64,000 bases of DNA from Blautia parvula. Its GTDB lineage: Bacteria; Bacillota; Clostridia; Lachnospirales; Lachnospiraceae. The position numbers and the translations under genes are program-made. A model generated the notes under the pieces. The model was not told where the DNA came from, made no database searches, and worked only from the letters and a program-made list of their open reading frames with translations. The stretch lies in assembly GCF_020215665.1 (NCBI RefSeq), contig NZ_CP084061.1:2760001-2824000 (forward strand), given 5' to 3'. Below are positions 2,779 to 34,901 of the stretch, one piece after another; the stretch's first letter is position 1; every line of letters starts with the position of its first letter.

Positions 2779-2811
2779 AAGTAAAATCCCCTTCCTGTCC
2801 AAATTCAAAAG

Positions 2812-3531: not shown

Positions 3532-5214
3532 TCAGACTACTTCTCCCAATTTCTTATTCTCTATACAGATTTCCCGGTCACAGTACTGCAGTACTGACCT
3601 TCTGTGTGTGATCAGCAGGCAGGTGGGTGCCGGATTCCAGCTTCTGATTCCTTCCAGTACCCTGAGTTCTGTCTCTTCATCCAAAGAAGAAGTTGCCTCA
3701 TCCAGAATAAGAAATGGTGCCTTGCGCACAAGCGCTCTGGCTATTGCGATACGCTGTGCCTGCCCTTCTGATATTCCGTGCCCCTTTTCTCCGATCACCG
3801 TATCAACCCCCTTGGGAAGCCCCGATACAAATCCATCTGCGGAAGCCCCCTTTAAAGCCTCCATAATCTCCTCCTCCGTTGCATCCAGCCGTCCCATACG
3901 GATATTTTCGCGGATGGTACCGCTGAATAATGTATTTCCCTGGGGAACATAGGAAATAAAATCTCTTGCACTGGCATTGGCTTTCTCCCTGTCTCCATGA
4001 ACATTATAAAATTCGATGGTACCTGCCGCTTTATTGGTGAATGCCATGATCAGCCTTACCAGGGTGGTTTTTCCAATCCCGGAGGCCCCTACAATGGCAG
4101 TGAATTCTCCCGGCTTAAAATCAATGGATGCCTGGTCAAATACTAAATCCTCCCCATAACCAAAGGATATCTTGTTTACTCTGACGCCTACCTGGTCTCC
4201 CCTGATATTTTCTTCCAGACTTGTTTCTTCCGGAAGCTTTTGGATCTCAATAATCCTTGCCGCGGAAGCGATCATGGATACCAGCTTGGGAATGGACTGG
4301 GCCAGATTCACGATCGGAGACTGTATACGGTTCACAAGTGTCAAAAATACTGTCATGGTACCAAAAGTTATTGTATTTCTTGATATACTCACAGCCCCCC
4401 AGGCAAATGCAGCCACATAGCCAAACTGAAATGCCAGGCTTAATATGGTGGAGGCAGCCAGACCGGTTCTGTTTTTCTTTAATACCCAGTACAGCCTTTC
4501 ATCACGGAGCCTGGTAAGCTTTTCCACGGAATAGTCCTCTGTCCGGAAAGATTTCACAATAAGTATATTAGACAGACTCTCCTGGATAAAGGACCGGTAT
4601 CTGGACTCTGTCTCCTGGACTTTCATCTGTAGTTTTTTCAGTATTCTTCCCAGCCACATGCTGCTCAGTGCTGCGGCCGGTGCGATTGCCAGGGCAAACA
4701 CCGCCAGTTTCCAGTCAAATACCGCCAGAGTACAAAAAGTAGCCAGAAGCTGTACTGCCAGCTGCAGGATTGAGGGAATGGTCACGGAAATACCATCCGC
4801 CACAATTCCCACATCCGTAGTCAGACGCGTCATCAGATCGCCTGTGTGATATTTTGTCACATCCAGCCAGTTTGTATCTAAAATCCTTCTGTACACCTGT
4901 TTTCTTATTCCAAATGCGAATTTCTCATATATTACAACCGCAGACAGTGCTCCAATACACATCATGGCCTGACTCACCAGAACGATCAGCACATAGAGAA
5001 GAATGACCTTTGTTACCGTATTGCCTGCACTTGCCTGATCCACCATGCGCTTTCCGATCAAAGCCAGTCCGATCGATGCCAGAGATACCATAATATTTAA
5101 AAACATGACCAGCGAAAGCTGAGGTATATATGGTTTTGTGTAATTCACGATCCACTTTATGTAAGAAGACTGATTCTCCCAGTCACTTATAAATTTTTTT
5201 ATCTTCCGCAGCAT
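3532..5214 (-). CDS. ABC exporter, permease-ATPase fusion (probable lasso-peptide exporter)
   Basis: A 560-residue half transporter: six-helix membrane domain (about residues 30-310) followed by the nucleotide-binding domain. Walker A is GASGIGKTT at 376-384 and Walker B is FLILDEAT at 501-508. The signature motif is ISEGQ (481-485) instead of LSGGQ, a noticeable change. There is no N-terminal C39 peptidase domain, which fits lasso D-type exporters because the leader is removed by a separate B2 enzyme. It starts four bases after the B2 gene with a strong GGAAGGGAG site, so the two are surely co-expressed. Export of the mature peptide, also giving self-immunity, is the role known for such neighbours. 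Export of an EPS part is less likely because Wzx is present. Confidence 0.85.
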   Translation of the reverse strand: MLRKIKKFISDWENQSSYIKWIVNYTKPYIPQLSLVMFLNIMVSLASIGLALIGKRMVDQASAGNTVTKVILLYVLIVLVSQAMMCIGALSAVVIYEKFAFGIRKQVYRRILDTNWLDVTKYHTGDLMTRLTTDVGIVADGISVTIPSILQLAVQLLATFCTLAVFDWKLAVFALAIAPAAALSSMWLGRILKKLQMKVQETESRYRSFIQESLSNILIVKSFRTEDYSVEKLTRLRDERLYWVLKKNRTGLAASTILSLAFQFGYVAAFAWGAVSISRNTITFGTMTVFLTLVNRIQSPIVNLAQSIPKLVSMIASAARIIEIQKLPEETSLEENIRGDQVGVRVNKISFGYGEDLVFDQASIDFKPGEFTAIVGASGIGKTTLVRLIMAFTNKAAGTIEFYNVHGDREKANASARDFISYVPQGNTLFSGTIRENIRMGRLDATEEEIMEALKGASADGFVSGLPKGVDTVIGEKGHGISEGQAQRIAIARALVRKAPFLILDEATSSLDEETELRVLEGIRSWNPAPTCLLITHRRSVLQYCDREICIENKKLGEVV

Positions 5215-5217
5215 GGT

Positions 5218-5676
5218 TTACTCCCTTCCGCATCCTCCTGCACGGAATTTATCCACAATTGCATAATCCCTTCCATCCCCCCCTGTCACATACATTTTTC
5301 CACATCTCAGCCAGGCATGGGCTATCATTTTCCCATTCTCATCCAACCCACAGCCAAGATAAAGGGTGGTTGCAATTTTCTTCCTCCGCAGCAGCTTTTG
5401 AGCAGTCAGTGCCCGCACCAGACATTTACTCTCCCATTTTGTTTTTTGACAGACCTGATCCACAGCATAGGAGACTTTTTTTGCATATAGATACTGGGGA
5501 ACATCCGCCTCTTTGGGCGATTCCTCTCCTTCCGCTCCCCACCTGCACTTCAGCCTTTTTGTATCCATATAAAGGATCTGGAGCCGGAAAACAGCGGAAT
5601 AGATCCATGCCAGCAAAGTCAGAGACTTGTGTTCATTGTATTTTATAAATCTTATCCCTCTTCTTATCAGGTTCAT
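5218..5676 (-). CDS. Lasso-peptide leader peptidase B2 (transglutaminase-like)
   Basis: The 152-residue protein has the Cys-His core of the transglutaminase-like lasso B2 family: Cys85 in WESKCLVRALTAQKLLRR, His120 in MIAHAWLRCG, and a nearby acidic cluster (GGDGRDY, 132-138) that may supply the Asp. In known systems B2 cuts the precursor leader while the PqqD-like B1 holds it and the C protein closes the ring. Length is normal for a stand-alone B2. It sits between the nucleotidyltransferase and the exporter, about 12.5 kb from the precursor genes, with EPS genes in between. Confidence in the family is high; assignment to these precursors rests on context. Confidence 0.88.
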   Translation of the reverse strand: MNLIRRGIRFIKYNEHKSLTLLAWIYSAVFRLQILYMDTKRLKCRWGAEGEESPKEADVPQYLYAKKVSYAVDQVCQKTKWESKCLVRALTAQKLLRRKKIATTLYLGCGLDENGKMIAHAWLRCGKMYVTGGDGRDYAIVDKFRAGGCGRE

Positions 5677-5696
5677 AAGTATATACTTCCAGTTCT

Positions 5697-6884
5697 TTAT
5701 TTTTTAAAATTCAAATGCAGTCTCTGATAAATCATTCTGACTTTTTCGATATTCTCCGGCTCTGCACGCTCCAGATATTTTTTTCTTTCCATACTGCCTT
5801 TACGTGTGATCCCCTGAAATGCCCTGCATGTCCAGGCAATGGGCAGCATATACGGAAATTTATCCAGCCATGCATAATGCTCCTTCATATATCCTAAGGC
5901 AGGAAAATAATATTTCATTCGCACGGACCTTTTATTTATTTTATCCGAGGTAATTTCCTTGGCAAGCTGTCCCCAGACTCCGTTTTCCCCTTTTCCATAA
6001 ATCCCACAATCCAGCATATACTCAAAAAGATTGTTATAGAATGTGTCGCCTGCAAGATTATCCAGCCATATGACAGAGAGATTCTTCATTTCTCTTTCAA
6101 AATTCAGTAACCCGCATTTTCGCAGCTCTTCCTCAACCAAACGCCTGTCCATTGTCGCTTTATATGCATTTTGATAGATATATATATCCAAAAGATTGCG
6201 GATTCCGCAGCCGGTTTCATAGAAATGTTTTGCCATATGGGAAATGAGATAAACATAAAAGTCTTCCTTACTGAATTCATAAGAATACTGCCATCCTTCT
6301 TTTTTCTCTGCGCGGAATTGTTTCTTAAAATAGACGGACTGGTTCCTGTCAACGTTCTGATCATATAAAGACCAATGCATTTCCAGCATTAAAAATGGCT
6401 TTTTGAAAAAGATCTCATGATGCTTAACCGTCTGATATTTCACAAATCCCAGCTCCTCCACCACTTTCTCTGCCTGTTCAAGGGAATCTTCATATATCAT
6501 AATGTCTATATCACCCATTTCACGAAATTCCGGTCTTGGATATATATGCTTCATGACAGCACCTTTTAAAACCTGATGCCGGATTTTATTTTCTTCCAAT
6601 TTCTCCTGGATCTCCCTGACTGCACACACCTGGGACAGTGTTTTTATGGTACTGTTCAACACAGACGGACGCATCTTCTCTGCATCTGCCTCCGGAATAT
6701 CCAGCTTAAGCAGTGATCCGAATATCAAATAACAAATCTGTCCTTTTTTCGCTGTCTCCTGCAGTTCTTCCAATGTCACACCCTTTGGCAGAGGCTGCGG
6801 AATCCGATCTTCCATTTGAGCATGTATCAGCTCACTCAAATATTCCATGATAACCGGTTTTTCTGATAAATTATCATTTCCCAT
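5697..6884 (-). CDS. Nucleotidyltransferase-fold protein (NTP_transf_5 type)
   Basis: The 395-residue protein has the minimal nucleotidyltransferase signature: LKGAVMKHIY (about 106-115) and GDIDIMI with Asp125 and Asp127 as likely metal ligands, then a helical C-terminal half. This family (PF14907-like) recurs in some lasso-peptide clusters next to HPr-kinase-like and B2 genes, and also in capsule loci. A peptide-tailoring role, such as nucleotidyl transfer to a side chain, is inference; the substrate is unknown. A GGAGGGG site precedes the ATG. The B2 gene follows after about 20 bases, so NTase, B2 and exporter form one tight group. Confidence 0.75.
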   Translation of the reverse strand: MGNDNLSEKPVIMEYLSELIHAQMEDRIPQPLPKGVTLEELQETAKKGQICYLIFGSLLKLDIPEADAEKMRPSVLNSTIKTLSQVCAVREIQEKLEENKIRHQVLKGAVMKHIYPRPEFREMGDIDIMIYEDSLEQAEKVVEELGFVKYQTVKHHEIFFKKPFLMLEMHWSLYDQNVDRNQSVYFKKQFRAEKKEGWQYSYEFSKEDFYVYLISHMAKHFYETGCGIRNLLDIYIYQNAYKATMDRRLVEEELRKCGLLNFEREMKNLSVIWLDNLAGDTFYNNLFEYMLDCGIYGKGENGVWGQLAKEITSDKINKRSVRMKYYFPALGYMKEHYAWLDKFPYMLPIAWTCRAFQGITRKGSMERKKYLERAEPENIEKVRMIYQRLHLNFKK

Positions 6885-6918
6885 TTTATCCCCTCCCGTC
6901 CCTGTGTATCACAATGCC

Positions 6919-8991
6919 TCACTTGATCATTTCATCTGTATAATGCAGCATATACTTGCTTCTGTTATTGAAAAAATGGAGTATTTTATCCACTTCATCC
7001 GCATAAAAATCATCTTTTACATTGCCGAAGAACCGCTTATAGCTGCTGACTGCCATTTTCTGAATCTTATGTGCGGTCTCATTTACAATCGCTTCTGCTT
7101 TTTCTTTCGGAAATATGTCATCTGCCATACGGTACATGGATTCCTTTAACTGCTGTCTGAATTCTCCGCTTCCAAGCAGGGACTGAAAAAACGCATCCTC
7201 CGTGACGCCCGGCTGTAACAGCGTATTGATCGAAGCTGTACTGACCGGCCCTGTGGTTCCGTTATCCATTGTCATATCCATACTTCCCAATACCCAGCGC
7301 CACCTGCCATCTGCATATCCTCCATTTTCTGAAGATACTGTCCGCCATATACAGGCCTCCTCCTGTCCGTATTGGGCATTGGCAAGATACATATTGGCGC
7401 AGAAATAATCAAGATAACTCCGGATATCCATCTCCTGCTTTACTATTTCATACTTTGATGTATCACTCATATCACTGCCTGTCACAAAATTATAAAATTC
7501 ATCATACAGAGACTGGAATTCCTTTTGATCAGCAGAACCGTTTCGGACAGTCACCACTTCTTCACCTGTTATCCCATACTGTTCTTCTATAAACTCCCGG
7601 GTAAAAGGCGCGCGCAGCATATAACCGCCCCAATTTTCCCCGTTTATAAAGACAACACAGGGCATCAGGATATTCGTTCCCACACTGGTCTCTTCAAGCA
7701 GTTTATTGGCTGTCAATTCCCGTATTTTGTAGGCATTATCGTATTTGTTCGTCTGTATTGTCAGGGTCTTTTCCGTTTTATTAAGAAAGCGCTCCAAAGA
7801 AGAGCCATCCCATCCGCCGCTTCCGGTGATTTGCGCAGAAAACCCTTTTTGCGGGGATGTAATATTCATATCTGTCAGCATAGAAAGATTGACGTCCCCT
7901 TCATATGTCATGTCCTTGCCGGATTCAAAAAACTCTATATGGGCCTTCTTCACCCAGCCGTTCCGATAATTTGCTTTTCTGTTATCTTTTCCCTCTCCCC
8001 GGGCAAGAGCATCTTCATAGCTTTGTCCCGAAACATACATACCGGTAAAGTAATCAAACAAATCAAGGGGATCGGCTGTAACAGATAAAACCGGCATATT
8101 GTTCAAATCACTGCTTCCGCCGACTCCCACATAATAGGAGCGAATCTTTTCTTCACTTCTCCTGCCATCCTCATCTACATAGACAGCCCGGATCACGGTC
8201 CCCTTCTGTATGCTGGCAGGCTTAAAGTTGTGCTCATATCCGATTCCGTCGGAATCCGCATAGATATAGTCTGAACCACTCCTGTTTTCAATTGTGACAG
8301 GTGCTGTATATTTCTCTGACTTTTCCGTGGGAACCGTTCCGTCTGTTGTATAATATATTTCTGTATGATCAGGAGCGGAAATAGTCAACGGAAAAGCAGA
8401 ATCATAAAAACCTGACGGGACAGAAAATTCCAACTGCTCTTTTTCTTTTTTTTCCGCAGGCTCATTAGCTTCTCCCTTTGTAGCATTCAGATATCCCATG
8501 GATATATCTCCGTCTGCCACTCGTCCATAACTCTCATTTTCAGTAAGCTTCGGAACGATCCATGACTGGATACAGGTTCCGTCCGCCTTTACCAGCGACA
8601 ATAGATTCTCCTTCCCCTCGCCTAATTTTTCATCAAGGTCCAGTGTCAGAAACTTTCCTGCATCCAATCGTGTATGTTTGGTAAGCTCCGCTTTTTTTTC
8701 ACCATTAACCAAAACAGCAATGCCTGATATATCCAGATCTTCCTTTTCACAGTTATACAATTCTATCCAGCCTGACTGGTTTACTTCATTAATCATCAGC
8801 GCTTTTGAAGAACCCGCATACAGACTGTCGTCATCCTCCCCGCTTTCTTCCTGCTGCATTGCCGCGGCAAGTTTTTCCCTCTCCTCCTGTTGTTTTTTTT
8901 CTGAATGGATGATAATAAAAATCAATACAGTCAGTGCCAGGATGCTCAGAGCAATGAGAAAAATATCTTTCGTGGAAAATTTTTTCTTCAC
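6919..8991 (-). CDS. Secreted CotH-like kinase with lamin-tail and chitobiase-like domains
   Basis: The 690-residue protein has an N-terminal membrane anchor (about 9-29). A lamin-tail-like beta domain follows (INEVNQSGWIELYN, from about 67), then a chitobiase C-terminal-like domain (YYTTDGTVPTEKS, about 215-285), then a CotH domain (about 295-690) with the KIRELTANKLLEE, NGENWGGYML and GSMDMTMDNG regions. CotH proteins are atypical protein kinases known from spore coats, so a secreted kinase acting on an envelope protein or peptide is plausible. The start is GTG with a perfect GGAGGTAGAAA site, and GTGA overlaps the VanZ stop by four bases. Its place in an EPS/lasso operon is unusual. Catalytic competence cannot be judged here. 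Confidence 0.78.
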   Translation of the reverse strand: MKKKFSTKDIFLIALSILALTVLIFIIIHSEKKQQEEREKLAAAMQQEESGEDDDSLYAGSSKALMINEVNQSGWIELYNCEKEDLDISGIAVLVNGEKKAELTKHTRLDAGKFLTLDLDEKLGEGKENLLSLVKADGTCIQSWIVPKLTENESYGRVADGDISMGYLNATKGEANEPAEKKEKEQLEFSVPSGFYDSAFPLTISAPDHTEIYYTTDGTVPTEKSEKYTAPVTIENRSGSDYIYADSDGIGYEHNFKPASIQKGTVIRAVYVDEDGRRSEEKIRSYYVGVGGSSDLNNMPVLSVTADPLDLFDYFTGMYVSGQSYEDALARGEGKDNRKANYRNGWVKKAHIEFFESGKDMTYEGDVNLSMLTDMNITSPQKGFSAQITGSGGWDGSSLERFLNKTEKTLTIQTNKYDNAYKIRELTANKLLEETSVGTNILMPCVVFINGENWGGYMLRAPFTREFIEEQYGITGEEVVTVRNGSADQKEFQSLYDEFYNFVTGSDMSDTSKYEIVKQEMDIRSYLDYFCANMYLANAQYGQEEACIWRTVSSENGGYADGRWRWVLGSMDMTMDNGTTGPVSTASINTLLQPGVTEDAFFQSLLGSGEFRQQLKESMYRMADDIFPKEKAEAIVNETAHKIQKMAVSSYKRFFGNVKDDFYADEVDKILHFFNNRSKYMLHYTDEMIK

Positions 8992-9605
8992 TTTCTACCT
9001 CCTTTGTTTTCATGGCCGGTACAGCCTTTGTACTTTTTACTGTAAACAGCCCAGGCTGCACAAAATATGAGCACTCCCAGAAGACCGCCCGATACGTTTG
9101 TAATCATATCTGTCAGTTCAAAATATCCTCTTCCTGTTATCAACTGCAGAGTTTCAATGGTAAAGCTGGTGAGGAAACTGGCGGAACACACCATAAATAT
9201 TTTTCTGCACATACACTCTTTTCCTCTTATGGCTGCCAGTAAAAATCCCCAGGGAACAAAAAGAGCCACATTTAACAAACTGTATACCCTCTGCTGAAAG
9301 CCCATATAATCTCCGGACCAGTTTCCGAAGTCAAGCTCTGTATAAACACCTTTCCTGCTGTTTGGCTCTCTGTTATATAAAGTGACCTGATACATAAAAC
9401 ATGCATATCCCGCAATCAGAAAGAGAACTGCCTCTCTTCTTTTGGAGCCTTCCTTACCTGCCAGCCTGTGAAAAACAAACCAAATAAGATGTATGGCAAT
9501 GACTGCCGCCAGTACCGTAAGCATCAGTGTCTCTGCGGAAATTCCTTTTAACTGCTGTTTTAACAGGACCAAAAAACAGCGCCAGTATTCTTCTAAATGA
9601 TTCAT
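8988..9605 (-). CDS. VanZ-like membrane protein
   Basis: The 205-residue integral membrane protein has about five hydrophobic segments and the VanZ signature region (NVALFVPWGFLLAAI; SFTIETLQLITGRGYFELTDMITNVSGGLLG). VanZ-like proteins occur often in surface polysaccharide and glycopeptide-resistance loci; the biochemical role is not settled. It overlaps the CotH-like gene by four bases and follows the glycosyltransferase by two, so all three are translationally linked. Confidence 0.8.
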   Translation of the reverse strand: MNHLEEYWRCFLVLLKQQLKGISAETLMLTVLAAVIAIHLIWFVFHRLAGKEGSKRREAVLFLIAGYACFMYQVTLYNREPNSRKGVYTELDFGNWSGDYMGFQQRVYSLLNVALFVPWGFLLAAIRGKECMCRKIFMVCSASFLTSFTIETLQLITGRGYFELTDMITNVSGGLLGVLIFCAAWAVYSKKYKGCTGHENKGGRK

Positions 9606-9607
9606 TT

Positions 9608-10462
9608 TTATAACTCCGGCAGTTCTTCATGATTCCTCTGTGCCAGATAATATGCATAAAAAGGAATCTCTTTTTTCATTTTCCTGTATCGGCGCTTACG
9701 CACAAGTATCTGTATTTTTTCAAAAACCTTTGGATTTCTTTTTAAAACAGACTTTATCTTGCTTTTTGTGCCATCAGCTCTGCCGGAATCACTTCTCCAC
9801 TCTCCGGCACACAGATGGACTGCATAATGTTTTCCTGACAGTGTTCCGATTTCAAAAAACTCCTTGGGATAAATAACAAAATCTTTTAAATCCTGCATCT
9901 TATTATTTAACCGGAACTCCGGATAGTGCTTCAGTATAAAATATGTATAATAATAATTGCTGGTCACATAGCCGTTCACCATGCATTTACCATCCCTCCA
10001 TTCCAAAGTCTTACCGTTTTTATTTTCTGTAAAAACAGTGGCATCATACATTTTCATCAGATTACCTATCAGCGGATTGCCTTTCTCAGCGCCAATCACT
10101 GCGGAACCCACAGAACAGTCAAAAATAAAATTTAAAAATGCCGTATGTGACAGTAATTCATCAAAAGAACGGTTTATCATTACATCTGTATCCAGATAGA
10201 TTCCTCCATATTCATAAACTGCCTTCAATCTGTAGTAATCACCGATAAACCCCAGTTTTTTTTCTGCATATGTTCTGCGGACAAATTCATTTTCATTAAA
10301 ACTGCAGTTTGTTTCATCCCAACGGATCACTTTATATCCCTTCAACTTTTTCCATGAATCCATACATGCCCGCAGTTCCTCCGGTATGGGCTTTCCTCCA
10401 AACCAGCAATAGTGTATGATTTTAGGAATCTTATTATTATTTTCTGTATGTTTTTTATCCAT
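9608..10462 (-). CDS. Glycosyltransferase, DXD sugar-binding type (GT32-like)
   Basis: The 284-residue protein begins PKIIHYCWFGGKPIPEELRACMDSW, the usual start of the GT32/Gly_transf_sug family. It has the central GDYYRLKAVYEYGGIYLDTDV motif with the DTD metal/nucleotide-sugar site. It is a cytoplasmic enzyme adding one sugar to the growing EPS repeat unit; donor and linkage cannot be read from the sequence. An AGGAGATGCATA site precedes the ATG, which overlaps the upstream gene by eight bases. Confidence 0.85.
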   Translation of the reverse strand: MDKKHTENNNKIPKIIHYCWFGGKPIPEELRACMDSWKKLKGYKVIRWDETNCSFNENEFVRRTYAEKKLGFIGDYYRLKAVYEYGGIYLDTDVMINRSFDELLSHTAFLNFIFDCSVGSAVIGAEKGNPLIGNLMKMYDATVFTENKNGKTLEWRDGKCMVNGYVTSNYYYTYFILKHYPEFRLNNKMQDLKDFVIYPKEFFEIGTLSGKHYAVHLCAGEWRSDSGRADGTKSKIKSVLKRNPKVFEKIQILVRKRRYRKMKKEIPFYAYYLAQRNHEELPEL

Positions 10463-12419: not shown

Positions 12420-12427
12420 ATGCACTC

Positions 12428-13780: not shown

Positions 13781-13795
13781 AACCCAAACCCATTT

Positions 13796-14725: not shown

Positions 14726-14728
14726 TTG

Positions 14729-15706
14729 TTATCCTTTCATCACATGTCCTAAAATTTTTCCTATGTATTTGCTGTTTCTGCGGTTTATATGTTTTATATA
14801 CCAACCTGTCTTTCCTGTGAAATAAGGATTCTTTTTATATTCCGGAAATTTTTCAGAAACAAAGCAAAAGGTTCTGTCCAGCAGTTCCTTTTCAAGCGCG
14901 GCATCCTTCACCCTGCCGATCCTGCTCAGAGAACTGCAGAATAATATTTTCGTGCAGAAATACTCCAGTTCCTTTTCAAACTGCTCATAAAAACCATATC
15001 TTCTGTAAAAATCCAGGATATCCTGCAATACACAAAAAATATCTGCAACTTTTTTATTTTTATTTACATTCATGGTAGATGTATTCCGAAGAAAATAATA
15101 GACCAGACGTTCATCCAAATAGGCAGATTTCAACACATAAGGAATCGTTTTGATGTAAAAAGATGTATCTTCGTAAATAAGTCCTTCCGGGAAATCAAGT
15201 CCCGGGCGCAGAAGTATTTCTCTTAAATATAACTTGTTCCAGGGTGATACCTGAGGATCTATAAACATATCCCTCCTGTTTGCGTGCTGACGGATATTTC
15301 CCCGGGTGTGCAGTTCTTTATTTCCCTTTTCTGTCTCCTGTATATAATGATAATGGCATTCCACCATATGGCATTTTCTTTCCTCGGCCAGAAGATACAT
15401 TTTCTCAAACATGGATACATCTACACAGTCATCCGAATCTGCAAATCCAATATATTTTCCTCTGCTGGCTCTGATGCCCATATTCCTGGCTGCTGCCTGA
15501 CCTTCGTTTTCTTTTGTGATGATACGGATTTTATCCCCGTATATACCGGCATATTTTTTGAGAACTGCCGGGGAATGGTCTGTAGAGCCATCATCTACCG
15601 CTATGATTTCCAAGTCCTCCAAAGTCTGGTTTACTAACGCATCCAGGCATCGCGGCAGATATTTTTCCGTATTATATACAGGCAGGATCACACTTACCTT
15701 TGCCAT
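14729..15706 (-). CDS. GT2 glycosyltransferase
   Basis: The 325-residue protein begins MAKVSVILPVYNTEKYLPRCL, with AVDDGSTDHSP and the FADSDDCVD metal site. It is a family 2 enzyme of EPS repeat-unit assembly. The frame extends upstream to 15769, but the ATG at 15706 starts exactly at the conserved strand, follows AGAGAAAAG, and avoids a long overlap with the Wzc-like gene ending at 15726. Acceptor and donor are unknown. Confidence 0.87.
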   Translation of the reverse strand: MAKVSVILPVYNTEKYLPRCLDALVNQTLEDLEIIAVDDGSTDHSPAVLKKYAGIYGDKIRIITKENEGQAAARNMGIRASRGKYIGFADSDDCVDVSMFEKMYLLAEERKCHMVECHYHYIQETEKGNKELHTRGNIRQHANRRDMFIDPQVSPWNKLYLREILLRPGLDFPEGLIYEDTSFYIKTIPYVLKSAYLDERLVYYFLRNTSTMNVNKNKKVADIFCVLQDILDFYRRYGFYEQFEKELEYFCTKILFCSSLSRIGRVKDAALEKELLDRTFCFVSEKFPEYKKNPYFTGKTGWYIKHINRRNSKYIGKILGHVMKG

Positions 15707-15725
15707 AATCTTTTCTCTGTCCCCA

Positions 15726-17114
15726 TTATTTCTTTTTTTCATATTCGTTGTTGTAATGCCTGTATTCATAATCCGGTGATTTGGCCGAAATGCCGTTATA
15801 AATAAAACCGCCTATGTTGGCATCCAGGGCTTCCAGTTTCCGCACCACTTTTTCTTCACGGTCGAATTTTGTCATCATTTCCCGCACAATCAGTATAAAT
15901 GCTGTAGCTGCTTTCGCCATAGACAGGGCATCCGATACAATTCCGATAGGCGGTGTATCTATAAATATTACATCATACTTTTTCTTACACTCCTGCAGAA
16001 GCTGATACCATTGATCACCTGCAAGTAATTCTGCGGGGTTTGGGGGAATACTGCCGGCAAGGATCAGATCCATATTGGCATCAACAGAAACAATTTCCAG
16101 CCGTTCCACAATGCCGGCCAGATACTGGCTCAATCCGGTTTCTGTATTTACCTTTAGAATTTGTCCCATAACACTTTTTCTCATATCCGCGTCTATGAGC
16201 AGAACTTTTTTTCCAAGATTGGAATAGGATTTTGCCACATTAAATGCGTTCAATGTTTTCCCTTCATTGACATCTGCACTTGTGACTGCATATACCGGAC
16301 ATTTTTCACCCCGCCTTGTAAACAACAGGTTTGCCCGGATATTGCTGTAAGCTTCCTTTAAATGAAAAGAGCTCTTTTCGTTTAAATATACATCTGCTTT
16401 TTCGCCTTCTTTTTCAGATAAAATCTGAGGAACCGTTCCGAGAATTGGAATTGTAAAGAGATTTTCAATTTCATAAAGCCTTCTGATGGTAGTATTCAGC
16501 ATCCCTTTTATCAGAAAACATACGGCTGCCAGAAAGAATCCTGCCGCTCCGCCCAGAAGTGCATATTTTACCACACTGGTTGAGGCATATGGGACAGTAG
16601 GAAGCTCCGCTTCATCAAGGACTTCAATTCCTCCTGATTTTACTACGCTGATAATTTCATCCGGTGCCAGCTTTCCTATGGTGTTTGCTATATTCATGGC
16701 ATTCTCAGGGCTGCTGTCATAAACGCTTACATGAAATACCGCCGTATTCTCTACAGCGGTAGCACCAATCTCTCCTCTCAGCCTTCCGATACTATATTCC
16801 TTCAGACCTGTCTCTTCCATAACAGCCTTTAAAAAGCGGTTGCTTCCGATGATCTGCATATAACTGTCCAGAAGCCCTTTAGCCTGAGTCATCTCATTAC
16901 TGCTTATATTCACTCCAGTATCTGTTACATAATCCGGACTGCTGTATACATAAAAGGAAATTTTCGCCATATAAGTGGTATTTTGCTTCCATGCTGCCAA
17001 AATCCCTCCTCCCGCAGCCAGCAGTAAAGCTGCCAGAATCATATATTTAATCCTGGACTTCATGATCCAGAATATTTTTTCCAAATTGAAATTTGTCAGT
17101 ATTATCTTGAACAC
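15726..17114 (-). CDS. Wzc-type chain-length determinant fused to BY-kinase
   Basis: The 462-residue protein carries both halves in one chain. Residues 1-205 are a Wzz-like domain with membrane segments at about 23-41 and 184-204. Residues 250-445 are a bacterial tyrosine kinase: Walker A SADVNEGKT (279-287, with Val-Asn where Pro or Gly is usual), A' LLIDADMR (305-312) and Walker B VIFIDTPP. The tail has four tyrosines within about ten residues (YEYRHYNNEY), the usual autophosphorylation cluster. Bacillota generally split these into two proteins, so the fusion is notable. No cognate phosphatase gene is in the window. The GTG start has a strong GGAGGGTAAAA site. Confidence 0.88.
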   Translation of the reverse strand: MFKIILTNFNLEKIFWIMKSRIKYMILAALLLAAGGGILAAWKQNTTYMAKISFYVYSSPDYVTDTGVNISSNEMTQAKGLLDSYMQIIGSNRFLKAVMEETGLKEYSIGRLRGEIGATAVENTAVFHVSVYDSSPENAMNIANTIGKLAPDEIISVVKSGGIEVLDEAELPTVPYASTSVVKYALLGGAAGFFLAAVCFLIKGMLNTTIRRLYEIENLFTIPILGTVPQILSEKEGEKADVYLNEKSSFHLKEAYSNIRANLLFTRRGEKCPVYAVTSADVNEGKTLNAFNVAKSYSNLGKKVLLIDADMRKSVMGQILKVNTETGLSQYLAGIVERLEIVSVDANMDLILAGSIPPNPAELLAGDQWYQLLQECKKKYDVIFIDTPPIGIVSDALSMAKAATAFILIVREMMTKFDREEKVVRKLEALDANIGGFIYNGISAKSPDYEYRHYNNEYEKKK

Positions 17115-17159
17115 TTTTACCCTCCTCAGTGTGATCGTTTGATCATTCTTTTTTATGTC

Positions 17160-18125
17160 TCAATCCGGCTTTCCGTTCAAATCTTCCATAATCCTGACGA
17201 TAAGTTCTCTCTGCCGATCTGTTGTCATTCCTTCTGTCGGTCTCACCATTCTGAATATTCTTAGCTGCTTTGCAGCCTGCAGACATTCCGTCATCATTTC
17301 AGGCGTAAACCCCATTCTCTTATAAGAAGTTTTCTTATAGAGACTTTCTGTTACCAGATTCAGTTTTTCTCCCCCCATGATCTCTTCTGCACAAACCTCA
17401 GAAACCGTTCCTGCCTGCAGGATCACCAGAACATGAGCCAAAACCCGTTCTTCCATACAGGAGTCTTTCATGCACAATCCATACTTTTCCCTGCCGCCGT
17501 CCGGAATCCGTATCAGCTGCGCTTTGCTGATACCCTGCTTCTTAACCACGTCCTCACAGAGACGCCTCAGTGGATACGCGCCGATTCCGTATATAACTCC
17601 GTTTTCTTCCTCCATAACAACTGCATCATCAGAAACAAATGAAAAGCCATGCTGTAAAAGCGCATCTGTCAGCGTGGATTTTCCACTTCCGCTCTCCCCG
17701 CTGATGATCAGAAGTTTGTTTTTATATTCCAGCCCGCTTCCGTGAAGGACGATTTTTTCTCTCTGTATCAGGAGTATGGTCATACACATATTGAGAATCC
17801 ACTGTTCCAACTGATATATATCAAGTTCTGCTGTCTTATGATATTCAATTTTCCTGCCCCGGGTTATTCTGAACAAGCCCACCGAAAAGACATATAAGAG
17901 ACTGCACTCTCTGGCAAGCTTCTGCATCATCCATGCCTGCTTTCCCTCTTTGTCCACAGATACCTGCACCTGCGTTTCCTTGTATGCCTCTGCCTTACCA
18001 TACTCTTCTGTCAGGTCAGCCCTTACGATCTCTGCCTCTGTCTCACTGTCATCGGAAAGCTGAAACGTGGAAGGCAGTTCTATTTCTGAATAAACATTCA
18101 AACCATATATTTTATATTTTGCCAT
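17160..18125 (-). CDS. HPr-kinase-like enzyme of the lasso-peptide cluster
   Basis: The 321-residue protein has a C-terminal HPr-kinase-like P-loop: ISGESGSGKSTL with the P-loop at 143-151, and FVSDDAVV (SDDA at 165-168), plus IYGIGAYPLRR. It lacks the N-terminal domain order of true HprK/P. Homologues in paeninodin-type clusters phosphorylate the C-terminal Ser of the lasso precursor. Here both precursors have a Ser close to the C-terminus (second and third from the end), so a similar role is plausible but unproven. It follows precursor 2 by about 96 bases, across a hairpin. Confidence 0.83.
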   Translation of the reverse strand: MAKYKIYGLNVYSEIELPSTFQLSDDSETEAEIVRADLTEEYGKAEAYKETQVQVSVDKEGKQAWMMQKLARECSLLYVFSVGLFRITRGRKIEYHKTAELDIYQLEQWILNMCMTILLIQREKIVLHGSGLEYKNKLLIISGESGSGKSTLTDALLQHGFSFVSDDAVVMEEENGVIYGIGAYPLRRLCEDVVKKQGISKAQLIRIPDGGREKYGLCMKDSCMEERVLAHVLVILQAGTVSEVCAEEIMGGEKLNLVTESLYKKTSYKRMGFTPEMMTECLQAAKQLRIFRMVRPTEGMTTDRQRELIVRIMEDLNGKPD

Positions 18126-18168
18126 CGTATATTCTTCACTTTATCTCTGATTTTCTGTCGTATAATAC

Positions 18169-18200
18169 AAAATGACTGATGTGCACTCACCAGTCATTTT
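18169..18200 (-). terminator. Hairpin after precursor 2
   Basis: Ten-base perfect arms (AAAATGACTG and CAGTCATTTT) with a 12-base loop lie just past the precursor 2 stop. The run after the stem (TTTTGTATT, minus strand) is moderately U-rich, so termination may be partial, letting some transcripts run into the kinase and EPS genes. Confidence 0.65.
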
Positions 18201-18221
18201 TTCATTTTTATTCACATACAC

Positions 18222-18392
18222 TCAAGCTGATGTATTATTTTCTCCATATGACTGCTCCCACCCAATCACTTCCCCATTCGGTCCTATTACAGCAGTTTTA
18301 TCACTATCTGGCATTTTGGGATTTTGGGGACCAAAAGCTGTTTCTTTTACATCCAACACTTCCATATCTGGCCTAACCCATGATTCTTTCAT
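18222..18392 (-). CDS. Lasso precursor peptide 2
   Basis: A 56-residue ORF with a very strong GGAGGAGG site. The leader (MKESWVRPDMEVLDVKETA) has the lasso recognition pattern: an aromatic residue (Trp5), Pro8, a hydrophobic residue at 10, and Thr18 near the cut site; its EVLDVK run also occurs in the paeninodin leader. The likely core starts at Gly21 (GPQNPKMPD), with Asp29 as ring acceptor giving a nine-residue ring, and a long tail to residue 56 ending NNTSA. With the usual Thr at -2, the core would instead start at Phe20 and Asp would be residue 10, so the cut site is uncertain. The sibling at 18546-18716 has the same length and pattern. Confidence 0.85.
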   Translation of the reverse strand: MKESWVRPDMEVLDVKETAFGPQNPKMPDSDKTAVIGPNGEVIGWEQSYGENNTSA

Positions 18393-18421
18393 AGCGATAA
18401 CCTCCTCCTTTTATATGTTAC

Positions 18422-18450
18422 ATCATATGCTCATTACAGATATGATTCAA
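18422..18450 (-). promoter_or_regulatory. Promoter of precursor 2
   Basis: On the minus strand TTGAAT (18450-18445), a 17-base spacer and TATGAT (18427-18422) lie about 30 bases before the ATG. This is a good sigma-A type match and implies separate transcription of precursor 2. Confidence 0.6.
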
Positions 18451-18485
18451 GTTTTCTATCAATATTGTTAGATTTACTTTTTTAA

Positions 18486-18523
18486 AAAAGAATGACCCCC
18501 TGTAGTCCAGCAGTCATTCTTTT
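18486..18523 (-). terminator. Intrinsic terminator between the two precursor genes
   Basis: Perfect 11-base arms (AAAAGAATGAC / GTCATTCTTTT) with a 16-base loop are followed on the minus strand by a T-rich run (TTCTTTTTTAAAA). It would end the precursor 1 transcript. Its stem core (AATGACTG...) resembles the hairpin after precursor 2, so gene and terminator were probably duplicated together. Confidence 0.75.
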
Positions 18524-18545
18524 ACTAAAATACATTATACTGAAA

Positions 18546-18716
18546 TTAAAGAGATGCAGCAGCCTCACCGAATTCCTGTTTCCATCCTAAAATGTTTCCC
18601 TGATCATCTGTCACTGCAGTTTTTTCTGAATCAGGGTTGTTTGGATTCATTACGCCAAAGGCTGTTTCCTTTACGTCCAGAACATCTACATCTGGTATTA
18701 TCCATGTTTTTCTCAT
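18546..18716 (-). CDS. Lasso precursor peptide 1
   Basis: A 56-residue ORF with an ideal GGAGGTGAC site. The leader (MRKTWIIPDVDVLDVKETA) shares Trp5, Pro8 and VLDVKETAF with precursor 2. The proposed core begins GVMNPNNPD (Gly21 to Asp29), then SEKTAV, and the tail ends GWKQEFGEAAASL. Positions identical in both peptides are TAFG, NP, PDS, KTAV, a Gly, GW, Gln, and GE, so selection acts on the tail as well as the ring. A 36-residue core is longer than the well-known lasso peptides (about 15-26), so later trimming or an atypical product is possible. It lies 47 bases after the C-protein gene, with its own promoter. Confidence 0.85.
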   Translation of the reverse strand: MRKTWIIPDVDVLDVKETAFGVMNPNNPDSEKTAVTDDQGNILGWKQEFGEAAASL

Positions 18717-18742
18717 ACTTGTCACCTCCTTTTGTGTTACCT

Positions 18743-18771
18743 ATATTATCCTGTTTAAAATCACTAATCAA
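18743..18771 (-). promoter_or_regulatory. Promoter of precursor 1
   Basis: TTGATT (18771-18766), a 17-base spacer and TAATAT (18748-18743) on the minus strand, overlapping the end of the C-protein gene. The predicted transcript would start about 20 bases before the ATG, consistent with high-level separate expression of the precursor. Confidence 0.6.
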
Positions 18772-20692
18772 CTCTTCTATCAACATTGTAAGACTTTTTC
18801 GCTTCGAGATATTCCAATAATATATTAGTAAAAATATGGCGCACAATCTCAAAATCCGTCATATCCTTTATCCCCTTTTCCTCCAATCCTGTCAGTGCCT
18901 TTTTGCAGTCAATACAGGTGCTGCCGGAGAATTTTTTGTAGTTTTCCTTCCACTCTTCTTCAATCTGACTGCTGAAGGGAAGCAGGCGTTGTTTTAAATC
19001 TGCGCTCTGCCTTCCCATGCCCTTTTCTTTCAGAATATGAGCCGGCACAATATCCTTCATATATTCAGCGATCAGACGGCGCCTGACACCATTATGGGTA
19101 AACTGTCCGTACGGCAGGGAGGTCACAAATTCGATCATCCTCTTATCCCTGGTAGGGTCCCGCATGATCACTCCTGTAAACAGAGAATTTTTCTGCATAT
19201 ACTCTCCGTAATGACGCAGAGTATCTGCTGTGAGGAATGCCTGCTGATAGGCCTTATGGGAATAGGAGCATTTCTGGATTTTTTTATCCAGCCGCAGCAG
19301 CCTTTTGTCCGAGCCGTTTTTTTTCAGATAGTCCCTTCTGACAAAAGATTTCCCGAACAGGGCTTCTCTGTCTGCCTTTTTCACTTTTTTGTGAAAAGAA
19401 TCCTTCACAGCTGTCTGCAGAACGCTTTTTTTCGTAAAATGCAGTTTTTTATTGATTCCGCAGACTTCCCTGTACAGGGTTATCCATCTTCCCCTCCTGA
19501 AAAGCCAGGCCAGATATACCATCGCATTATCAAAAGAAACCGTTCCGTTGCCAAACATACCGCCCAGCATAATCCTTGCATTTTTCTCGTATGCCTGTCT
19601 CATCCCCTCATAAATCCAAAGCATATTCTGAGGCGACTTATAGGGTATCTCCGAAATCCTCATATATTTTTTTCTGTCATACCAGCAGTTCATTTCCGGC
19701 ATGTTCATAAAGGTACATTCCAGATTCTCCACCACATCTGCCGTTTTTTGAACAAGTTCTGTCTCGTCCGTGATATAGCCCTTCCCCAAGTCCGGTTCAT
19801 ACCCGTGAAAAGGTACAGAGGTGAAGGAATAAAGCTTTTTTCCGCACTTTTCCAGTTCCTTTGCTGCCAGACAGGCAACCGAAGTGGAATCATAACCTCC
19901 GCTTAATAAAACGGCTGTTTCCGCCGGAGAACGCAGAAGACAGGCTGTACATTCTCTGTACAGATCCAGAAAATGCTTTTTATACTCCTTATCACTTTTA
20001 TACACTGTTTTTTTCTTTTTCTGATAAGGCTGCCAGTAACAGCGTTTCTTAATATCTTTCTGCGTAATTTTCAGGAATCCGGCCGGAGCCGTACGGTAAA
20101 TCCCCAAAACCGGTGTCTCTTCCGCCTCTGTAAATGCGTTCAGATTATCCTGCCCTATGTAATCTGCCACCCACCGGTCATTTATTTTCAGCTCACCGCA
20201 CAGCTCCTCCAAAGGTCTCATCAGAGAAGAATAATAAAACACATCGTCGCGGATCAGGTAATACACATACCTGTAGCCAACGGCATCTGCCAGAACCGTG
20301 ACTTCTTTTTTTCTCCTGTCATACCAGACAGCAGCATATGCTCCCAGCAGATCATTTTGACAGCTTTCCCCATATTTTTGAAGCATCAGGTATAACAGTC
20401 TGCCATCTGTCACAGCATCCTGCTCTTCAAAATGAAGGCGCTTTAATAATGCTTTGCGGTTATCCAGGATAACGTCCGCGTCGAAAAAAAATTCCTGCGC
20501 TTTTATGGGTAACTGCTCACTTACAGCTTCTTTGGTAAAATACTGTATTCCGCACCCCATATAGATATCGTCTTCTTTTATCTCTTCCCACCGGTCAATC
20601 ACACAGTCGGAAAATGCGCTTTTCAGGATACTGCACTCTTTTGCTCCGATCTTCTTACCATTCAGACTGACAGCGCCACATATTGCAGACAT
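18764..20692 (-). CDS. Asparagine-synthetase-like lasso cyclase (C protein)
   Basis: A 642-residue protein of the AsnB fold. The N-terminal glutaminase-like domain starts MSAICGAVSLNG; Cys is residue 5, not the Cys2 nucleophile of true AsnB, as expected for lasso C enzymes that do not use glutamine. The synthetase domain has the ATP-binding SGGYDS motif at 264-269. In lasso systems this enzyme adenylates the Asp/Glu side chain and closes the macrolactam with the new N-terminus. The frame extends to 20731, but GAGGAGG at five bases marks the ATG at 20692. It is the first minus-strand gene of the lasso block and is divergent from the PqqD-like gene. Confidence 0.9.
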   Translation of the reverse strand: MSAICGAVSLNGKKIGAKECSILKSAFSDCVIDRWEEIKEDDIYMGCGIQYFTKEAVSEQLPIKAQEFFFDADVILDNRKALLKRLHFEEQDAVTDGRLLYLMLQKYGESCQNDLLGAYAAVWYDRRKKEVTVLADAVGYRYVYYLIRDDVFYYSSLMRPLEELCGELKINDRWVADYIGQDNLNAFTEAEETPVLGIYRTAPAGFLKITQKDIKKRCYWQPYQKKKKTVYKSDKEYKKHFLDLYRECTACLLRSPAETAVLLSGGYDSTSVACLAAKELEKCGKKLYSFTSVPFHGYEPDLGKGYITDETELVQKTADVVENLECTFMNMPEMNCWYDRKKYMRISEIPYKSPQNMLWIYEGMRQAYEKNARIMLGGMFGNGTVSFDNAMVYLAWLFRRGRWITLYREVCGINKKLHFTKKSVLQTAVKDSFHKKVKKADREALFGKSFVRRDYLKKNGSDKRLLRLDKKIQKCSYSHKAYQQAFLTADTLRHYGEYMQKNSLFTGVIMRDPTRDKRMIEFVTSLPYGQFTHNGVRRRLIAEYMKDIVPAHILKEKGMGRQSADLKQRLLPFSSQIEEEWKENYKKFSGSTCIDCKKALTGLEEKGIKDMTDFEIVRHIFTNILLEYLEAKKSYNVDRRVD

Positions 20693-20708
20693 AAGATCCT
20701 CCTCTTTT

Positions 20709-20720
20709 GGAAACGTTTCC
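20709..20720. promoter_or_regulatory. Perfect 12-base palindrome before the cyclase gene
   Basis: GGAAACGTTTCC lies just upstream of the cyclase ribosome binding site. The CG-centred palindrome resembles LacI/CcpA-family operators, though it misses several bases of the cre consensus. A roadblock or operator role is inference. Confidence 0.4.
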
Positions 20721-20731
20721 GGCAGCAACAA

Positions 20732-20785
20732 ATAACATTACTTCGCAAAAATTAATTGATAATTTAATGTTTTTCGTAATGTTAT
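20732..20785. promoter_or_regulatory. Inverted repeat in the divergent cyclase/PqqD intergenic region
   Basis: Ten-base perfect arms ATAACATTAC (20732-20741) and GTAATGTTAT (20776-20785) are centred 44 bases apart, about four helical turns, in very AT-rich DNA between two divergent genes. This could be a paired operator that loops or binds a dimer of dimers; a plain hairpin is less likely given the wide spacing. Confidence 0.4.
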
Positions 20786-20827
20786 CACTAATTTTATTGT
20801 TTTTTATTATTTTATCTAATTAATTCC

Positions 20828-20856
20828 TTGCCGCTTTTCTTAAAATAAGGTACAAT
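20828..20856 (+). promoter_or_regulatory. Promoter of the PqqD-like gene
   Basis: TTGCCG (20828-20833), a 17-base spacer and TACAAT (20851-20856), with a start site expected about 30 bases before the ATG at 20893. Confidence 0.55.
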
Positions 20857-20892
20857 AATTTTATAATAAATTCATTTACATGGAGATAAACA

Positions 20893-21159
20893 ATGGATAA
20901 ATATACCATAATACAACTAAAGAAAAAATTGAATGTAACAGATTTATCCGGTGAAAAAGTCATGGTAGACTTTGATTCCGGAAAGTATTTTATGATCAAA
21001 GGTGCCGGTAATGATATCTGGAATTTAATACAGACGGAAATTACGGTGGGGGACATTATTAAGAGACTTATGGAAGATTATGAAGTCTCAGAAGAGGAAT
21101 GCACTTCTGCTGTTATAAAATTTCTTCAAAAAATGAAAGAGCTGGATTTCATTTATTGA
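20893..21159 (+). CDS. PqqD-like leader-binding protein (lasso B1)
   Basis: The 88-residue protein has the PqqD/RRE fold pattern: VMVDFDSGKYFMIKGAGNDIWNLI, then a helical end (VGDIIKRLMEDYEVSEEECTSAVIKFLQKMKELDFI). Stand-alone B1 proteins bind the precursor leader and present it to the B2 peptidase and the cyclase. Here it is the only plus-strand gene in the first 27 kb, divergent from the cyclase and convergent with the flippase, so its level can be set apart from the rest. A GGAG site lies eight bases before the ATG. Confidence 0.88.
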   Translation: MDKYTIIQLKKKLNVTDLSGEKVMVDFDSGKYFMIKGAGNDIWNLIQTEITVGDIIKRLMEDYEVSEEECTSAVIKFLQKMKELDFIY

Positions 21160-24003: not shown

Positions 24004-24031
24004 CTCACGCCGTCTCCTATTATTTTCCTGT

Positions 24032-34765: not shown

Positions 34766-34901
34766 ATTTGTTATCCTTTCTCTGATTATTATTTTAATCC
34801 TCTGCAGCGGCAATTTTTTCCATTTTTAAGCATAAAAATACCACCCCCTCCAGAATGCTTCTGCAGAGCTCATAAAATACCACGATTCACTTTTTTCTCT
34901 C

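What the first reader, a model, noticed from the sequence alone, without database searches (positions are those of the whole stretch)
3532..21159. Lasso-peptide gene set split around an EPS (Wzx/Wzy) locus
Sequence shows all lasso parts (two precursors, PqqD-like B1, B2 peptidase, cyclase, ABC exporter) plus HPr-kinase-like and nucleotidyltransferase tailoring candidates, but eight EPS-type genes lie between the precursor/kinase end and the NTase/B2/exporter end. Lasso clusters are usually compact. The arrangement suggests that the peptide is made together with the capsule, or that the peptide or its modification is coupled to the glycan. Coupling is inference; the family calls are established knowledge.
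Basis: partly seen in the sequence, partly recalled or inferred. Interest (0 to 1): 0.85.

Follow-up and report, generated by a model that had tools for sequence, protein, structure and literature searches.

The report
Lasso-peptide genes built into polysaccharide operon
A Lachnospiraceae bacterium carries the genes for a knotted, probably phosphorylated peptide inside the operon that builds its sugar coat, and related bacteria suggest that the peptide's processing and export genes have evolved more closely with the sugar-coat genes than with the knot-making enzyme.

Summary
A complete paeninodin-like lasso set (B1/RRE, cyclase, two precursors, HPr-type kinase, NTP_transf_5, B2, ABC exporter) lies inside a Wzx/Wzy polysaccharide locus; eight genes sit between kinase and NTase. 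Genes from kinase to GT2/pyruvyltransferase (18125 to 640) share one strand with gaps of 45 bp or less.

It is not a one-off. Two or more polysaccharide genes lie within 10 kb of 9 of 11 family B2 loci but in 1 of 19 control windows. This Wzy family is in 6 of 12 genomes with strong B2 and 3 of 385 without. In 25 lasso-positive genomes, one RRE was found in 25 and one B2 in 24, but up to three cyclases. RRE and exporter co-diverge with the priming sugar transferase (partial r 0.70, 0.78), scarcely with the cyclase (0.09, -0.06).

Best reading: a polysaccharide-resident processing hub serving exchangeable cyclase/precursor/kinase cassettes. Co-production is supported by layout, not by expression data; covalent peptide-glycan coupling is untested. 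Embedding in capsule loci is already in print for Bacilli (PMC13381572): a new variant of a known kind.

The parts
20893..21159 (+). PqqD-like B1 (RiPP recognition element), only one found in the genome
   Evidence: PF05402 63.8 bits, NF033536 77.3 bits (cut-off 80); single match in G000 at E<=1e-8
18764..20731 (-). lasso cyclase C (Asn-synthase type); ORF from a TTG, likely true start at MSAICG (residue 14)
   Evidence: PF00733, NF033535 223.5 bits, below cut-off; LSGGYDS at residue 276; M14 invariant in alignment
18546..18716 (-). precursor A1 MRKTW..P, core from G after TAF, predicted G1-D9 ring, 36-aa core; followed by hairpin with T run
   Evidence: NF033524 20.9 bits, below cut-off 27; AGGAGGTGACAAGT before ATG; hairpin z=-4.2
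18222..18392 (-). precursor A2, same layout; followed by hairpin
   Evidence: NF033524 27.3 bits, cut-off 27; hairpin z=-3.8
17160..18125 (-). HPr-kinase-like lasso kinase (K)
   Evidence: PF07475 31.5 bits, TIGR04352 50.7, both below cut-off; HGSG, GESGSGKS, SDD fit the His-Lys-Asp-Asp motif named in PMC9266682
15726..17114 (-). Wzz/BY-kinase fusion (polysaccharide co-polymerase, tyrosine autokinase)
   Evidence: PF02706/PF13614; TIGR01007 153 bits over cut-off
14729..15769 (-). GT2 glycosyltransferase
   Evidence: PF00535
13796..14725 (-). GT2 glycosyltransferase
   Evidence: PF00535
12428..13780 (-). Wzy-type polymerase/ligase
   Evidence: PF04932 34.6 bits
10455..12431 (-). GT2 + capsular polysaccharide synthesis domain
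   Evidence: PF00535, PF05704
9608..10462 (-). DXD sugar transferase
   Evidence: PF04488
8988..9605 (-). VanZ-like membrane protein
   Evidence: PF04892
6919..8991 (-). CotH kinase-like protein, lamin-tail domain and N-terminal hydrophobic stretch
   Evidence: PF08757; relatives above 400 bits only in G000, G045, G336 of 397 genomes, all with strong B2
5697..6884 (-). NTP_transf_5 nucleotidyltransferase
   Evidence: PF14907 163.7 bits; GDIDI motif; model resembles NTase folds weakly
5218..5676 (-). B2 leader peptidase, only one in the genome
   Evidence: NF033537 73.3 bits; C85, H120, GGDG
3532..5214 (-). MsbA-like ABC exporter (D)
   Evidence: PF00664+PF00005
2812..3498 (-). OmpR-type response regulator
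   Evidence: PF00072 + PF00486; recurs beside the ABC gene in other loci
640..2808 (-). GT2 + polysaccharide pyruvyltransferase
   Evidence: PF00535 + PF04230
3..656 (-). histidine kinase, cut by the window edge, overlaps the previous gene by 17 bases
   Evidence: PF00512 + PF02518
21200..22732 (-). Wzx flippase
   Evidence: PF01943; NF041503 40 bits, below cut-off
22756..24063 (-). QueC-like PP-loop ORF, no Pfam or NCBIfam family
   Evidence: SGGVD and Cys-rich motifs shared with relatives; weak QueC fold match
24032..25429 (-). priming polyprenyl glycosylphosphotransferase
   Evidence: PF02397; TIGR03025 388 bits over cut-off
25468..25998 (-). Alg13-like GT28 C-terminal half
   Evidence: PF04101
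25941..26492 (-). Alg14-like partner
   Evidence: PF08660

Best explanation
A Wzx/Wzy exopolysaccharide operon has absorbed the constant part of a paeninodin-like lasso pathway: the leader-binding RRE, the B2 peptidase, the NTase, the exporter and a two-component regulator. A cyclase/precursor/kinase cassette is plugged into it. Likely steps: the RRE captures the WxxP leader; the kinase phosphorylates a Ser near the C terminus; B2 cuts after TAF; the cyclase closes a G1-D9 ring; the NTase puts a nucleotidyl or sugar group on the phosphate; the MsbA-like pump exports the peptide. This happens in step with polysaccharide production because the genes share an operon, and in relatives one RRE/B2 hub serves several cassettes. 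Shown here: gene content, order, copy numbers, co-occurrence, co-divergence. Inferred: co-transcription, every chemical step, hub service in trans, and that the peptide is a matrix- or surface-associated product released with the EPS.
For: Gene content. Gaps of 45 bp or less from kinase to GTpyr. Two or more EPS genes within 10 kb of 9 of 11 family B2 loci and 13 of 17 cyclase-selected Bacillota loci, against 1 of 19 control windows. Order priming transferase - RRE - Wzz/BY-kinase - GT2 - GT2 - Wzy - ... - VanZ - CotH - NTase in G614, G778 and G782. Wzy family in 6 of 12 genomes with strong B2 versus 3 of 385 others, p=1.4e-8, and in 7 of 15 genomes picked by cyclase. One RRE in 25 of 25, one B2 in 24 of 25, 34 cyclases of 450 bits or more, two or more in 10 of 25; three K+C+A cassettes on contigs of 119, 265 and 379 kb that hold neither the RRE nor the B2 of their genome. 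Distances, partial on RecA: ABC-priming transferase 0.78, RRE-priming transferase 0.70, B2-NTase 0.73, NTase-Wzz/BY-kinase 0.73, against RRE-cyclase 0.09, ABC-cyclase -0.06; the contrast holds on one set of 9 genomes (8 for ABC).
Against: RRE, B2 and ABC do not co-diverge clearly with Wzy or CotH (r 0.02 to 0.30). B2 and NTase keep some correlation with the cyclase (partial 0.24 and 0.33). Cyclase-kinase co-divergence (0.65) falls to 0.19 when the cyclase nearest the RRE is used, so the cassette is not one rigid unit. Lasso loci with no EPS hit within 10 kb exist (G346, G203 C14, L069, L076, L077, and outside the family G751 and G709), as do loci of this Wzy family without cyclase, kinase, RRE, B2, NTase or CotH (3 of 9). 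Linked genes can co-diverge by joint transfer alone. EPS profiles were built here from the window and its relatives. Most genomes are drafts, so absence and 'elsewhere' are soft. No expression or product data.
Confidence: 0.68

Rival explanations
1. Covalent coupling: the phosphorylated tail of the lasso peptide is joined to sugar, first by the NTase and then by EPS glycosyltransferases or the Wzy/ligase-type enzyme, giving a peptide-capped or peptide-bearing polysaccharide.
For: NTase PsmN puts one or two hexoses on the phospho-Ser of pseudomycoidin (PMC9266682 section '3. Phosphorylation'); NTase lies between EPS genes and B2 and co-diverges with the Wzz/BY-kinase and the Alg14-like gene (0.73, 0.54); weak fold likeness of the NTase model to ANT(2'') (E 0.002) and to the polyol-phosphate transferase FKRP (E about 0.2); Wzy matches the O-antigen-ligase family PF04932.
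Against: No chemistry seen. The same review leaves open that a host glycosyltransferase did the step for PsmN. PsmN-type NTases are also known outside EPS loci (recalled). Ser is near, not at, the C terminus in A1 and A2.
Confidence: 0.15
2. Bystander: EPS loci are hot spots of gene gain, and lasso genes land there often without functional link.
For: Patchy presence: strong B2 in 12 of 397 family genomes; EPS loci without lasso and lasso loci without EPS exist; PMC13381572 section 12 describes many gains and losses in Bacilli.
Against: Interleaving in tight operons, shared order across G614, G778, G782 and the window, association with one Wzy family, and co-divergence of hub genes with EPS genes but not with a cyclase that is linked as well.
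Confidence: 0.15
3. Two ordinary neighbouring clusters whose order was scrambled once by a rearrangement in this strain.
For: PqqD is transcribed against the rest and a 468-bp gap parts Wzx from the cyclase.
Against: Interleaving also in G614, G778, G782, G779 and L079/G785.
Confidence: 0.02

Closest known systems
Paeninodin-type lasso clusters embedded in capsular polysaccharide loci of Bacilli (Popov et al. 2026, PMC13381572; start of abstract, passages, sections 6 and 12 seen)
   Same: WxxP leader, discrete RRE, B2, cyclase, HprK-like kinase, NTP transferase, MsbA-like pump; embedded in capsule genes; role unknown
   Different: Here a Lachnospiraceae genome; hub genes interleaved through the Wzy operon, with CotH and VanZ; RRE and B2 single copy while cyclase cassettes multiply; no second RRE with SipW-like peptidase seen in the window locus
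Rumen lasso clusters of Butyrivibrio and Lachnospira (PMC7533575; passages and section 16 seen)
   Same: Same precursor types (G1-D8/9, Thr at -3, long tail with Ser); kinases, NTase, GT2 and EpsH noted beside B. fibrisolvens clusters
   Different: In what was seen, glycosyltransferases are treated as additional genes; no EPS-embedded RRE/B2 hub or distant cassettes described
Pseudomycoidin (PsmK/PsmN), via review PMC9266682, section '3. Phosphorylation'
   Same: Kinase plus nucleotidyltransferase-annotated enzyme as tailoring pair
   Different: Shown chemistry on C-terminal Ser; an EPS operon is not mentioned there; Ser is not terminal here
LPP (linear polyphosphorylated peptide) clusters, PMC13381572
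   Same: RRE, kinase, NTP transferase, pump near capsule genes
   Different: LPP has a YxxP leader, SipW-like peptidase and no cyclase; here WxxP and a cyclase

Membership tests
Lasso peptide cluster (A, B1, B2, C) | RRE, transglutaminase-like B2, Asn-synthase-like cyclase and precursor in one genome region | tested here: met
   cyclase, B1 and one precursor lie below the curated NCBIfam cut-offs
Lasso peptide cluster (A, B1, B2, C) | threaded product | not testable with these tools
   needs mass spectrometry/NMR
Paeninodin family | precursor matches NF033524 | tested here: inconclusive
   A2 27.3 bits (cut-off 27) met; A1 20.9 not met
Paeninodin family | Trp in the leader WxxP motif | tested here: met
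   MRKTWIIP, MKESWVRP; feature as stated in PMC13381572 section 12
Paeninodin family | C-terminal Ser as kinase target | tested here: not met
   A1 ends ASL, A2 ends TSA: Ser is penultimate; so filed as paeninodin-like only
Paeninodin family | HprK-like kinase, NTP transferase, MsbA-like exporter | tested here: met
LPP family | SipW-like signal peptidase, YxxP leader, no cyclase | tested here: not met
   no signal peptidase among the Pfam/NCBIfam results for the annotated genes of 0.6-26.5 kb, cyclase present, WxxP leaders; no dedicated SipW search was made
Wzx/Wzy-type EPS locus | priming transferase, GTs, Wzx, Wzy, Wzz/BY-kinase | tested here: met

The most novel reading that the evidence does not exclude
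The locus makes a lasso peptide-polysaccharide conjugate: interchangeable phosphorylated lasso tags, made by swappable cassettes and prepared by one EPS-resident RRE/B2/NTase hub, are joined through phosphate to the EPS chain and shown on the surface, a variable peptide layer on a sugar coat.
Probability: 0.12. Interest if true: 0.92.

Novelty: new variant of a known kind. Interest (0 to 1): 0.62.

Why it matters
The role of paeninodin-type lasso peptides is unknown (PMC13381572, section 12). That the leader-binding and export parts co-diverge with the polysaccharide priming machinery, while the cyclase does not, points to the sugar coat as the setting in which these peptides act and gives direct tests. 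Single hubs with several distant cassettes would also mean that cluster-based mining misses products, because cassettes without an RRE or B2 nearby look incomplete.

Tried and rejected
Cyclase alone as a probe of genome contigs found nothing; the alignment A1 found 80 loci, of which L069-L086 were annotated; L087-L148 (distant Asn-synthase relatives) were seen only in the listing. L084 (Desulfobulbus, 3.4 kb) was left out of the Bacillota count.

Transglut_core3 alone is too broad: 93 of 397 genomes match at E<=0.001, 12 of 397 at E<1e-16; most of the rest lie in longer frames, were taken as unrelated and dropped without inspection. That searches drew the same 397 genomes is judged from their handles.

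CotH as a marker: 48 of 397 genomes match, three above 400 bits, the rest 200 or less; only the top class was used. The 450-bit line for cyclases was set by eye in the gap between 481 and 200 bits.

The 19 control windows sit at round coordinates, not random ones.

A tree test was replaced by distance-matrix correlations; p values come from 2000 permutations without correction for the many pairs examined.

The consensus terminator scan did not list the two hairpins behind the precursors, and the promoter scan found 45 sites against 30.9 in shuffles; neither was used. Structure models: QueC-like ORF mean pLDDT 66.8, NTase 80.8; Foldseek gave no match at E<=0.001 for either, so these are leads only.

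The motif lists of precursors contain chance ORFs; I use those with WxxP near the start and lasso genes nearby. Ring size is open: Thr at -3 with G1-D9 (as PMC7533575 assumes) or Thr at -2 with a ring of 10.

Literature: lasso peptide+CotH, lasso peptide+Lachnospiraceae+capsular polysaccharide, and a search for four of five terms on orphan/in trans/RRE/EPS showed no title or abstract on this arrangement (listings only); some searches gave the papers cited. Most subscription journals are not in that library.


Full report
What is there. The region from the window edge to 26492 is one polysaccharide locus with a lasso pathway inside it. On the minus strand from the 5' end: Alg14-like and Alg13-like GT28 halves, priming glycosylphosphotransferase, a QueC-like ORF, Wzx; then a 468-bp gap that holds PqqD/B1 on the plus strand; then cyclase, two precursors, HPr-type kinase, Wzz/BY-kinase, two GT2, Wzy, GT2+Caps_synth, a DXD transferase, VanZ-like, CotH, NTP_transf_5, B2, ABC exporter, response regulator, GT2+pyruvyltransferase and a histidine kinase cut by the edge. 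From kinase to the pyruvyltransferase all gaps are 45 bp or less and several genes overlap. Each precursor gene is followed by a stable hairpin (z -4.2 and -3.8), the first with a T run; the consensus terminator scan does not list them. They could let the peptides be made in excess of the downstream genes (inference). Motifs expected of working enzymes (recalled, but for the kinase motif) are present in kinase, B2, cyclase, NTase and exporter. The genome, one contig of 6.25 Mb, has one B2, one RRE of this kind and one cyclase above 450 bits, and two precursors of this type, both here (E<=0.001).

Precursors. A1 and A2 share W..P in the leader, TAFG, a D at position 9 counting that G as 1, SEKT or SDKT, and GW.Q.(F/Y)GE. 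Two precursors of G115 share these features except that the P of W..P is replaced; one of the Eubacterium record L071 aligns more loosely. Table 3 of PMC7533575 lists related cores from Eubacterium cellulosolvens and Lachnospiraceae YSD2013 and puts Thr at -3 with a G1-D8/9 ring. Ser lies near the C terminus but is not terminal in A1 and A2.

Not a one-off. A scan of 397 family genomes with Transglut_core3 gave 12 genomes with E<1e-16. Around the 11 with enough DNA, 9 have two or more EPS genes within 10 kb of B2; 19 windows of 20 kb at round coordinates, from G000, G127, G096, G047, G171, G380 and the lasso-free G116, gave 1 (Fisher p=3.5e-5). Of 17 Bacillota loci picked by cyclase alone, 13 pass the same test (L074 is the same locus as G066, and some loci are cut by contig ends). 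The misses are G346, G203 C14, L069, L073, L076 and L077; G346 has two Wzz/BY-kinase genes further off. A class-wide scan with NF033537 found 8 of 391 genomes over the cut-off, the window's own among them: G440 and G614 are EPS-embedded, G560 has three EPS hits, G688 one within 10 kb, G751 and G709 (5.7-kb contig) none; G462 fell below the anchor score and shows no EPS hit.

A particular EPS type. Relatives of this Wzy occur in 9 of 397 family genomes; 6 of these are among the 12 with strong B2 (p=1.4e-8). Of 15 genomes reached through cyclase loci 7 have it, all among the 12 titled Lachnospiraceae, Butyrivibrio or Eubacterium; in some it lies on another contig than the cyclase (G782, G784) or about 45 kb away (G785). 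The three Wzy-positive genomes without strong B2 (G116, G179, G250) show no cyclase, kinase, RRE, B2, NTase or CotH within 20 kb of Wzy; G179 has an MsbA-type ABC gene. CotH relatives above 400 bits occur in three of 397 genomes, all with strong B2; by the session's profile, related CotH genes also lie beside Wzy, VanZ or NTase in G614, G778, G779, G781, G782, G784 and G785.

A hub and its cassettes. In G614, G778 and G782 the RRE sits, on the same strand, between the priming transferase and the Wzz/BY-kinase, followed by GT2-GT2-Wzy-...-VanZ-CotH-NTase as here; G785 has priming transferase - RRE - GT2. Identities of the window to G614 are 45-70% for EPS genes (VanZ and CotH 34-35%), 66, 67, 62 and 47% for RRE, B2, ABC and NTase, but 28 and 25% for cyclase and kinase. 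The nearest cyclase and kinase among those compared are in G115 (52 and 47%), where the precursors also match, in a differently ordered EPS locus. Over 25 lasso-positive genomes (13 placed in the window's family, 12 with the titles above): one RRE in 25, one B2 in 24 (two in G115), and 34 cyclases of 450 bits or more, two or more in 10 genomes and none at that level in G045 and G346. In G780 both cyclases lie in one locus; in the other nine genomes at least one cyclase is on a contig without the B2 or the RRE. G787, G779 and G380 carry kinase, cyclase and precursor on contigs of 119, 265 and 379 kb that hold neither; other extra cyclases lack a kinase in view or lie on short contigs. So one hub probably serves cassettes in trans. 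A more divergent second RRE would be missed at this threshold, and G346 has one such. In a 290-genome sample 10 have this RRE: 9 have strong B2; the tenth, G026, has it at a contig end beside a GT2 gene.

Co-divergence. Pairwise distances of RRE, B2, ABC and NTase correlate with those of several EPS genes after removing RecA distance (ABC-priming transferase 0.78, n=12; RRE-priming transferase 0.70, n=13; B2-Alg14-like 0.66, n=13; NTase-Wzz/BY-kinase 0.73, n=10; but NTase-priming transferase 0.29, n=10, and ABC-Alg14-like 0.39, n=13), and less with the cyclase (RRE 0.09, n=23; ABC -0.06, n=18; B2 0.24, n=23; NTase 0.33, n=15). In 9 genomes where RRE, a linked cyclase and the priming transferase are all at hand, RRE-priming transferase stays at 0.71 and RRE-cyclase at -0.07. 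Against a tidy story: RRE, B2 and ABC show little correlation with Wzy and CotH, and cyclase-kinase correlation drops from 0.65 to 0.19 in the linked subset. Joint transfer of linked genes could give part of the signal.

What is known. Popov et al. 2026 (PMC13381572; passages, sections 6 and 12) report paeninodin-like clusters embedded in capsular polysaccharide loci in Bacilli, with kinase, NTP transferase and MsbA-like pump, and say the role is unknown. PMC7533575 (passages and section 16) lists kinases, NTases and glycosyltransferases, including EpsH, beside rumen lasso clusters. The review PMC9266682 (passages and one section) describes kinase action on C-terminal Ser and hexose addition by PsmN. 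New here, as far as the searches show: the single-copy EPS-resident RRE/B2 hub, cassettes in trans, the CotH link, and the co-divergence contrast.

Verdict. Observation confirmed; co-production with EPS supported by genomics only; covalent coupling open. New variant of a known kind.

Noticed in passing
22756-24063 (-); L073:5928-7193, L224:10466-11737, L220:15521-16000, L209:2-706: An ORF without Pfam or NCBIfam family over threshold, with a PP-loop SGGVD and a Cys-rich motif, recurs at lasso or EPS loci of five genomes, the window's included; the model weakly resembles QueC.
   Followed up: partly
L217, L219, L222, L043:18176-18379: Precursors from four genomes share DGGY(I/L)GDG.(I/V)SG near the predicted ring.
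   Followed up: no
L214, L215, L221: Precursors from three genomes share LGTC.NP(Y/F)W.GNG....EA...NP(Y/F)W.G.WG, next to kinase and cyclase with no RRE or B2 in the stretch fetched (L221 only 4.5 kb).
   Followed up: no
G779 C8: L215 and L216: Two equally scoring kinase-cyclase cassettes in opposite orientation near the two ends of one 265-kb contig; may be an assembly effect or a duplication.
   Followed up: no
window 27705-29921 (+) and 30962-34813 (-): Alpha-L-rhamnosidase, and a 1283-aa protein with ricin-type lectin, Big_3, FIVAR and dockerin domains next to the EPS locus.
   Followed up: no
window 3-656 (-) and 2812-3498 (-): Histidine kinase and OmpR-type regulator close the operon; a regulator next to the exporter recurs in other lasso loci.
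   Followed up: partly
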